A program made the position numbers and the translations under genes. From positions 1-62,167 of IMG/VR virus record IMGVR_UViG_3300042549_002778: a stretch of DNA of 62,167 nucleotides; one strand, written 5' to 3'. Below the pieces are notes generated by a model that saw only the letters and a program-made list of their open reading frames with translations, made no database searches and had not been told where the DNA came from. The stretch comes from a virus. Shown here piece by piece: positions 48,210 to 49,107 of the stretch (within the stretch, counting starts at the first letter, position 1; the number at the start of each line of letters is the position of its first letter).

Positions 48210-48362
48210 ATGATCAAGGTTCGCAAAAACGCAAAAGTGAAGATTTGGAATGTCTATGCCTCGAATGGAGAAAGCCTTGGGCAGTATTCCTTCTACGTTG
48301 CTGAAGTGAAGGCTTACTTCCCCGGCTGCACAATTCAAAAGCAGAACGTCTATCTTCCGTAA
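48210..48362 (+). CDS. small basic protein upstream of ribozyme
   Basis: A 50-residue ORF with GAATGGAG seven bases before its ATG. The sequence (IKVRKNAKVKIWNVYASNGE, SFYVAEVKAYFPGCTIQKQN) suggests a small beta-alpha domain. Its stop codon TAA (48360-48362) shares its last base with the first base of the hammerhead ribozyme, so cleavage would leave the coding part intact. It is the first gene of the long rightward block. Unknown function. Confidence 0.6.
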   Translation: MIKVRKNAKVKIWNVYASNGESLGQYSFYVAEVKAYFPGCTIQKQNVYLP

Positions 48363-48413
48363 GTCGAAACGGGCTTCAGCCCGTCTGTCGGTAAGGCCGG
48401 CACTGATGAGACT
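48362..48413 (+). ncRNA. type II hammerhead ribozyme
   Basis: All core parts of a hammerhead are present. Stem II is open: AGTC (48362-48365) pairs with GACT (48410-48413). GAA (48366-48368) leads into stem III, ACGGGC (48369-48374)/GCCCGT (48379-48384), loop TTCA. The cleavage residue is C48385, in the GTC context. Stem I is TGTCGG (48386-48391)/CCGGCA (48397-48402), loop TAAGG. The invariant CTGATGA is 48403-48409. Cleavage after 48385 would split the mRNA between the genes at 48210 and 48436. Every invariant nucleotide matches. Confidence 0.88.
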
Positions 48414-48435
48414 AAGCAACCAAGGAGATTATGAA

Positions 48436-48771
48436 ATGAAAACATTCACGATTCAGACTGCTCACTCGACCAAGAAATCGGCCGAAGCTTCTATCGTTAT
48501 GGGATACGCCGACGGAACCTACGCGCCGGACTTCCCGCCCTACATCGTTTGTGATGGTGAAGGCAACTTTCTGGTTGTGACTGCCGTCGTAAATTACCGT
48601 AACAGTCTAATCTATTACGACGCTGACACCTATCGTTATTGGTGGGAAGACGCCGTTACGGGAGTCGTCGGTGGCGAAAATTTCGACACGTTCGAGGAAG
48701 CGAAAGCAGACATTCGGGGTGATGGCCAGCAACGCGAAAAATTTAATCGCGGGCCGTATGCTTATCTGTAA
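48436..48771 (+). CDS. hypothetical protein between ribozyme copies
   Basis: A 111-residue acidic protein rich in Tyr (ADGTYAPDFPPYIVCDGEGN, NSLIYYDADTYRYWWEDAVT). ATG 48436 is chosen for AAGGAG upstream; the in-frame ATG at 48406 would lie in the ribozyme core. It is bracketed by the intact hammerhead and a decayed copy, so this gene and its leader may have been duplicated or moved as a unit. Function unknown. Confidence 0.6.
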   Translation: MKTFTIQTAHSTKKSAEASIVMGYADGTYAPDFPPYIVCDGEGNFLVVTAVVNYRNSLIYYDADTYRYWWEDAVTGVVGGENFDTFEEAKADIRGDGQQREKFNRGPYAYL

Positions 48772-48825
48772 GGACGAAACGGGACGCTAGTCCCGCCCGC
48801 CGGTAAAGCCGGTATTGATGAGACT
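48772..48825 (+). ncRNA. degenerate hammerhead-like element
   Basis: This leader aligns throughout with the ribozyme at 48362-48413: GACGAAACGGG start, stem III CGGGAC/GTCCCG (48780-48785/48790-48795), stem I with a TAAAG loop (48804-48808), then TTGATGAGACT. Key changes are invariant C3 to T (48815), the T before the cleavage site to C (48796), and A-A mismatch in stem II. It is therefore probably inactive, or retained as a structured leader of the gene at 48841. Confidence 0.7.
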
Positions 48826-48840
48826 GAATGGAGAGCAGTT

Positions 48841-49107
48841 ATGAAATCTGAGCTTGCTGATCTTTATGCTGCGGCTAAAATTGAGGTTGAGGCTGCACAG
48901 GCTGCGTTGGACGCAATCAAGGCGCAGATCATTGCGACCGGATGCGATGTCATTGAGGGCGATGACTTTCGCGTGAATGTCGGACTTCAGGAGAGAACAA
49001 CAATATCCGCGAAAGAGGCGGAAAAGGTTTTGCCGACTGATCTGTATCAGTCGCTGGCAAAGACCACGATGTTTCCGGCTGTCAGATATAAAGCAATACG
49101 AGCGTAA
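48841..49107 (+). CDS. hypothetical coiled-coil protein
   Basis: An 88-residue protein with an N-terminal helix (ADLYAAAKIEVEAAQAALDA) and a beta-rich end (DVIEGDDFRVNVGLQERTTI, KTTMFPAVRYKAIR). GAATGGAG lies seven bases upstream of the ATG. Similar short proteins occur near phage replication genes, as far as I recall; the function is unknown. It precedes the deaminase-like gene. Confidence 0.58.
   Translation: MKSELADLYAAAKIEVEAAQAALDAIKAQIIATGCDVIEGDDFRVNVGLQERTTISAKEAEKVLPTDLYQSLAKTTMFPAVRYKAIRA

What the first reader, a model, noticed from the sequence alone, without database searches (positions are those of the whole stretch)
48362..48413. Complete type II hammerhead ribozyme between two early phage genes
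Every invariant core element of a hammerhead is present in order: open stem II AGTC/GACT, GAA, stem III of 6 bp with a TTCA loop, cleavage residue C48385 after GT, stem I of 6 bp with a TAAGG loop, and CTGATGA. The stop codon of the upstream gene shares its last base with the ribozyme, and the next gene's Shine-Dalgarno lies about six bases after it. Self-cleavage would separate the two coding regions and leave a 5'-OH on the downstream mRNA, which could change stability or translation. Hammerheads are known in bacteria and phages, but their role there is unclear.
Basis: partly seen in the sequence, partly recalled or inferred. Interest (0 to 1): 0.88.

Follow-up and report, generated by a model that had tools for sequence, protein, structure and literature searches.

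The report
Self-cutting RNA between phage genes
Between two small phage genes lies a conserved RNA that almost certainly cuts itself (a type II hammerhead ribozyme); many phages carry such cutters at gene boundaries, this one belongs to a sub-type that the standard database model mostly misses, and a worn-out second copy sits one gene downstream.

Summary
Window 48362-48413 (+) is a complete type II hammerhead with predicted cleavage after C48385. Rfam Hammerhead_II scores it 35.6 bits, just below its cut-off of 37. A model built here from relatives gives 72.3 bits. In viruses chosen only because they carry the upstream 50-aa gene, a hammerhead follows that gene in 9 of 11, and all three stems covary.

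The window's ribozyme belongs to a rigid sub-type: 6-bp stem I, U-N-A-N-G loop, 4-bp stem II, an A before stem II, and no loop I-tail pseudoknot. Rfam's cut-off finds 1 of 24 such elements, against 24 of 26 of the others. A decayed copy lies one gene downstream (48770-48827).

Across IMG/VR these elements fill the gap between a stop codon and the next ribosome-binding site, in single-strand arrays. Cultured Streptomyces phage Celia has 11.

Most likely function: co-transcriptional processing of polycistronic phage mRNA into short units, with a hairpin at each new end. Cleavage was not tested here. Type II hammerheads flanking prophage genes were reported in 2011, so this is a variant of a known kind. 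I found no description of the sub-type in the open-access papers I could search.

The parts
48210..48362 (+). Upstream cistron, 50 aa (MIKVRKN...), function unknown; its stop TAA 48360-48362 overlaps the ribozyme by one base
   Evidence: the ORF listing; 11 relatives at 67-76% identity in IMG/VR; no PHROG family
48362..48413 (+). Type II hammerhead ribozyme, U-N-A-N-G sub-type
   Evidence: cmscan 35.6 bits; own model 72.3 bits; covariation
48385..48385 (+). C17, residue 5' of the predicted cleavage point (cut between 48385 and 48386)
   Evidence: position in the hammerhead core; cleavage itself not tested
48369..48384 (+). Stem III hairpin, would form the 3' end of the upstream mRNA after cleavage
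48386..48402 (+). Stem I hairpin with UAAGG loop (U-N-A-N-G class), would form the 5' end of the downstream mRNA
48422..48427 (+). Shine-Dalgarno AAGGAG of the next gene (start ATG 48436)
   Evidence: sequence
48436..48771 (+). Downstream cistron, 111 aa, function unknown, no relatives found
48770..48827 (+). Decayed hammerhead at the next cistron junction: C3 to U, U16.1 to C, 1.1 T to C, stem II mispaired; the two hairpins remain
48841..49107 (+). 88-aa cistron after the decayed copy; relatives elsewhere start at their own promoter-like sequence

Best explanation
A functional type II hammerhead ribozyme that cuts the phage's rightward polycistronic transcript at the junction of two cistrons, probably as it is being transcribed. 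Because stem II is the open stem, the cut lies exactly between two closed hairpins. The upstream mRNA then ends one base after hairpin III with a 2',3'-cyclic phosphate, directly after its stop codon. The downstream mRNA begins with hairpin I and a 5'-OH, directly before its ribosome-binding site. Each gene, or short block of genes, thereby becomes a separate mRNA whose new ends are structured and chemically blocked against the usual 3' exonucleases and 5'-monophosphate-dependent decay, and whose expression is insulated from changing neighbours. Shown here: the motif, its covariation, and its conserved placement between stop codon and ribosome-binding site on one strand. Inferred: cleavage, stabilisation and insulation.
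For: Complete core and stems. Covariation in gene-selected homologues and in a set whose stem I was not constrained by the search: 148 of 148 distinct elements pair fully, with four or more pair types at every position. Placement in that set: the upstream stop codon ends -5 to +1 nt from stem II in 107 of 149; the next start codon is a median 23 nt after it. 71 of 71 contigs with several hammerheads have them on one strand; 89 of 120 neighbouring pairs enclose exactly one ORF. Cultured Streptomyces phage Celia: 11 model matches at 11 gene boundaries, nine also recognised by Rfam at E up to 0.01. Pistol ribozymes sit at gene boundaries with a hammerhead in contig L060, which points to cleavage rather than the fold as what is selected. 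Published: triple arrays in Agrobacterium, Azorhizobium and Clostridium cleave in vitro, and the Agrobacterium one in E. coli (PMC3088659).
Against: No cleavage, RNA-end or stability data for this phage. The window's second copy has lost its core, so processing is not indispensable at that junction. In two of 11 relatives a terminator-like hairpin with no ribozyme follows the 50-aa gene, and in one the upstream ribozyme is absent. In longer RNA the predicted probability of stem II is low (0.13-0.26), though the energy model ignores the core's tertiary contacts. Stabilisation of both ends is reasoning from general mRNA-decay knowledge, not measurement.
Confidence: 0.7

Rival explanations
1. Insulated gene cassettes: the main benefit is evolutionary. 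A gene bounded by self-cleaving junctions can be inserted, lost or reordered without disturbing its neighbours' mRNAs, like the synthetic RiboJ insulator.
For: 676 genes next to hammerheads fall into 449 similarity clusters. The 50-aa gene has different partners in different lineages while the ribozymes stay beside it. Genes after hammerheads are mostly unassigned, with scattered anti-restriction, integrase and RusA hits.
Against: Phage accessory genes are mosaic anyway; shuffling was not compared with that of genes lacking ribozymes. It needs the same cleavage and adds a selective reason rather than excluding the best explanation.
Confidence: 0.4
2. Translation switch: before cleavage the ribozyme hides the ribosome-binding site of the next gene, and cleavage frees it.
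For: The binding site lies a median 12 nt after stem II; predicted unpairedness rises on cleavage from 0.49 to 0.55 on average (282 elements, Wilcoxon p 1e-5).
Against: The effect is very small (median +0.02; window 0.38 to 0.41), and the binding site itself lies outside the ribozyme.
Confidence: 0.1
3. Relic of a mobile or circular-RNA element (retrozyme-like) or of junction recombination, without present function.
For: Hammerheads mark retrozymes in eukaryotes (literature); one window copy is decayed.
Against: No element around the ribozymes; they are about 50 nt and packed between stop codon and ribosome-binding site; intact with compensatory changes over large divergence.
Confidence: 0.05
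4. Not catalytic: two tandem hairpins that act as a transcription terminator or RNase barrier and resemble a hammerhead.
For: Hairpins are stable (median -10.8 and -8.4 kcal/mol) and remain in the decayed copy.
Against: Core bases outside the hairpins and the open stem II are conserved, stem II with covariation; a run of four T follows stem II in only 5 of 366 elements.
Confidence: 0.03

Closest known systems
Type II hammerhead ribozymes of bacteria and prophages (Perreault et al. 2011, PMC3088659; Rfam RF02276)
   Same: Topology (open stem II), core, C17, single-gene spacing, intergenic arrays in phage genomes
   Different: The published consensus has a loop I-tail pseudoknot. The window element has 4-bp stem II, 6-bp stem I and a UNANG loop, no pseudoknot of 4 bp or more was seen, and it scores under Rfam's gathering score.
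Triple hammerhead array around ardA in an Agrobacterium prophage (PMC3088659)
   Same: Hammerheads flanking single small phage genes; cleave in vitro and in E. coli
   Different: Different phage and genes; in the window one copy is intact and one decayed
Pistol ribozyme (RF02679)
   Same: Self-cleaving RNA at phage gene boundaries; found beside a hammerhead in contig L060
   Different: Unrelated fold
RiboJ insulator (synthetic biology)
   Same: Hammerhead that trims the 5' end of an mRNA to isolate a gene from upstream context
   Different: Engineered; placed after promoters rather than between cistrons (own knowledge)

Membership tests
Type II hammerhead ribozyme | Core C3 U4 G5 A6 N7 G8 A9, G12 A13 A14, A15.1-U16.1, H17 | tested here: met
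   CTGATGA 48403-48409, GAA 48366-48368, A48369-T48384, C48385
Type II hammerhead ribozyme | Three stems, I and III closed by loops, II open | tested here: met
   MFE fold; pair counts on alignments A2 and A4
Type II hammerhead ribozyme | Covariation in homologues | tested here: met
   Gene-selected homologues: score 0.395 against 0.122 shuffled, no broken pair
Type II hammerhead ribozyme | Mg2+-dependent self-cleavage after H17 | not testable with these tools
   Bench assay needed
Rfam RF02276 Hammerhead_II | Score at or above the gathering threshold of 37 bits | tested here: not met
   35.6 bits; the sub-type as a whole falls below: 1 of 24 reach it, against 24 of 26 other type II elements
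Pseudoknotted type II consensus of Perreault et al. | At least 4 WC pairs between loop I and the tail after stem II | tested here: not met
   The element falls in the UNANG group; loop UAAGG has no 4-base complement in the tail AAGCAACCAAGG
Hammerhead, for the second copy 48770-48827 | Intact core and core-adjacent pairs | tested here: not met
   C3U with G8 kept, 16.1 C, 1.1-2.1 C/A, stem II mispair; likely inactive
Intrinsic terminator | Hairpin followed by a T run | tested here: not met
   None at the ribozyme in the window scan; T run in 5 of 366 elements

The most novel reading that the evidence does not exclude
A distinct, widespread structural sub-class of phage type II hammerhead, largely missed at the Rfam cut-off, in which a U-N-A-N-G loop on a fixed 6-bp stem I docks on a 4-bp stem II flanked by A residues in place of the pseudoknot. 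It would serve as a general device that turns phage polycistronic transcripts into single-gene mRNAs capped by hairpins at both cut ends, making accessory-gene cassettes interchangeable.
Probability: 0.4. Interest if true: 0.78.

Novelty: new variant of a known kind. Interest (0 to 1): 0.55.

Why it matters
The role of hammerheads in phages has been an open question since 2011. The quantified layout (stop codon, ribozyme, ribosome-binding site; one strand; one gene per interval in most cases) supports the mRNA-processing idea. The both-ends-capped reasoning predicts specific RNA ends. The cultured Streptomyces phage Celia, with 11 elements in about 8 kb, makes the question directly testable. 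The sub-type also shows a blind spot in the database model used for annotation.

Tried and rejected
Ribosome-binding-site unmasking by cleavage: computed for 282 elements, effect too small. Terminator reading: rejected. Second copy as an active variant: rejected, because C3U lacks the compensating G8A and three further core or stem positions are off. Relatives by the dCTP deaminase gene: 32 loci; the nearest relatives (L122-L126) showed no hammerhead with the model, and the closest contig (L122) begins downstream of the ribozyme. Relatives of the 111-aa gene: none found. Orthologous ribozyme before the 88-aa gene in L227, L154 and L233: none; they carry a promoter-like sequence instead. Isolated phages with the 50-aa gene: none. 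Paper searches for a role in phages, a UNANG-type description or Celia's array found nothing newer than PMC3088659 and reviews; supplementary figures, among them Figure S5 of PMC3088659 on tertiary contacts, could not be read.

Full report
What is there. Rfam lists nothing in the window at its gathering thresholds. Searched without that threshold, the element is a full-length Hammerhead_II match of 35.6 bits against a threshold of 37. A structural parser that demands the core and all three stems finds one such element in 160 random windows.

A second copy. The junction after the next gene carries a related sequence, again directly after a stop codon (48769-48771). It has lost the core: C3 is U with G8 unchanged, U16.1 is C, pair 1.1-2.1 is C/A and stem II is mispaired; both hairpins remain. 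A model built from relatives (R1), which does not contain this copy, finds it at E 3e-9. The C3-to-U change is tolerated in nature when G8 becomes A (PMC3088659), which is not the case here, so I read it as an inactivated copy.

Homologues. The 50-aa upstream gene finds 11 relatives in IMG/VR. A hammerhead follows it in 9; the other two (L162, L163) have a terminator-like hairpin. One precedes it in 10, and L157 lacks that one. Six of the 11 (L154-L159) are nearly identical, so independent lineages are about five. On 11 distinct elements chosen this way, 176 of 176 pair cells are standard pairs and 7 of 16 pairs change on both sides, with changes in all three helices.

The sub-type. Of 208 parsed elements, 121 have a loop I-tail pseudoknot of at least 4 pairs, mostly with 3-bp stem II. 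A group of 66 has stem I of 6 bp (65), a loop of the U-N-A-N-G kind (middle A in 61) and stem II of 4 bp (62). The base before stem II is A in 77 of 77 elements of this kind where the search did not fix it. A second search left the 17 bases of stem-loop I free. All 148 distinct elements pair fully in stem I, loop position 1 is U in 147, position 3 A in 113, position 5 G in 120, and 99 fit U-N-A-N-G. The pattern did fix the 17-base length, stem II and the A before it, so those are not evidence in that set. Rfam at gathering finds 1 of 24 elements of this group but 24 of 26 others. Alignment A2 (47 elements) gives a covariation score of 0.784 against 0.148 shuffled; its members were chosen by a parser that requires pairing, so the figures from the free search and the gene-chosen set carry more weight.

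Placement. In the second set the upstream stop codon ends -5 to +1 nt from stem II in 107 of 149, and the next start codon is a median 23 nt downstream. Contigs with several hammerheads always have them on one strand (71 of 71), and 89 of 120 neighbouring pairs enclose one ORF. Contig L060 has one hammerhead and four pistol ribozymes, with stop codons close upstream of them. Streptomyces phage Celia (MN062705.1) has 11 model matches between 41.3 and 49.0 kb, all at gene boundaries (a few overlap the annotated end of a neighbouring gene, one by 25 bases), nine of them also Rfam matches at E up to 0.01. Celia's elements have a longer stem I loop and are closer to the pseudoknot group than to the window's.

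Mechanism. In the type II permutation the cut falls between the two closed hairpins, so both products carry a hairpin at the new end. In type I and type III only one product does (own reasoning from the topology). With a cyclic phosphate on one side and a 5'-OH on the other, both ends should resist the commonest decay routes (general knowledge). This suits a junction where both products are mRNAs. Simple unmasking of the ribosome-binding site is not supported. Diverse, mostly unassigned neighbour genes and changing partners of the 50-aa gene fit an insulating role but do not prove it. Cleavage of comparable arrays in vitro, and of one in E. coli, is published (PMC3088659).

Limits. No cleavage or RNA data exist for this phage. 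Contigs are metagenomic; the host is unknown, and the terminase's closest named relatives include an uncultured phage and several phages of alphaproteobacteria at 36-55% identity. The sub-type may be contained in the 2011 data set, whose supplementary figures I could not read.

Noticed in passing
L319 (MN062705.1, 41305-49022): Cultured Streptomyces phage Celia carries 11 hammerhead matches at gene boundaries, including next to an OCR-like antirestriction gene; 133 phage records, 122 of them Streptomyces phages, match all or part of one 151-base stretch around a Celia ribozyme.
   Followed up: partly
L256-L306: The UNANG sub-type occurs in bacterial genome assemblies, many of them Gastranaerophilales (Melainabacteria) gut MAGs, often two copies about 300 nt apart beside the same gene families; probably prophages, not checked.
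   Followed up: no
L060 495-2753: Four pistol ribozymes and one hammerhead in one 5.8-kb contig, all on one strand.
   Followed up: partly
L061 3157-3265: RAGATH-24 RNA (81.6 bits) beside a type II hammerhead.
   Followed up: no
L083 1487-1537: Half hammerhead: stem II strand, GAAA and stem III intact, the rest replaced; another decayed junction.
   Followed up: no
window 48431-48439: Micro-ORF ATG AAA TGA overlaps the start codon of the 111-aa gene (ATGA).
   Followed up: no
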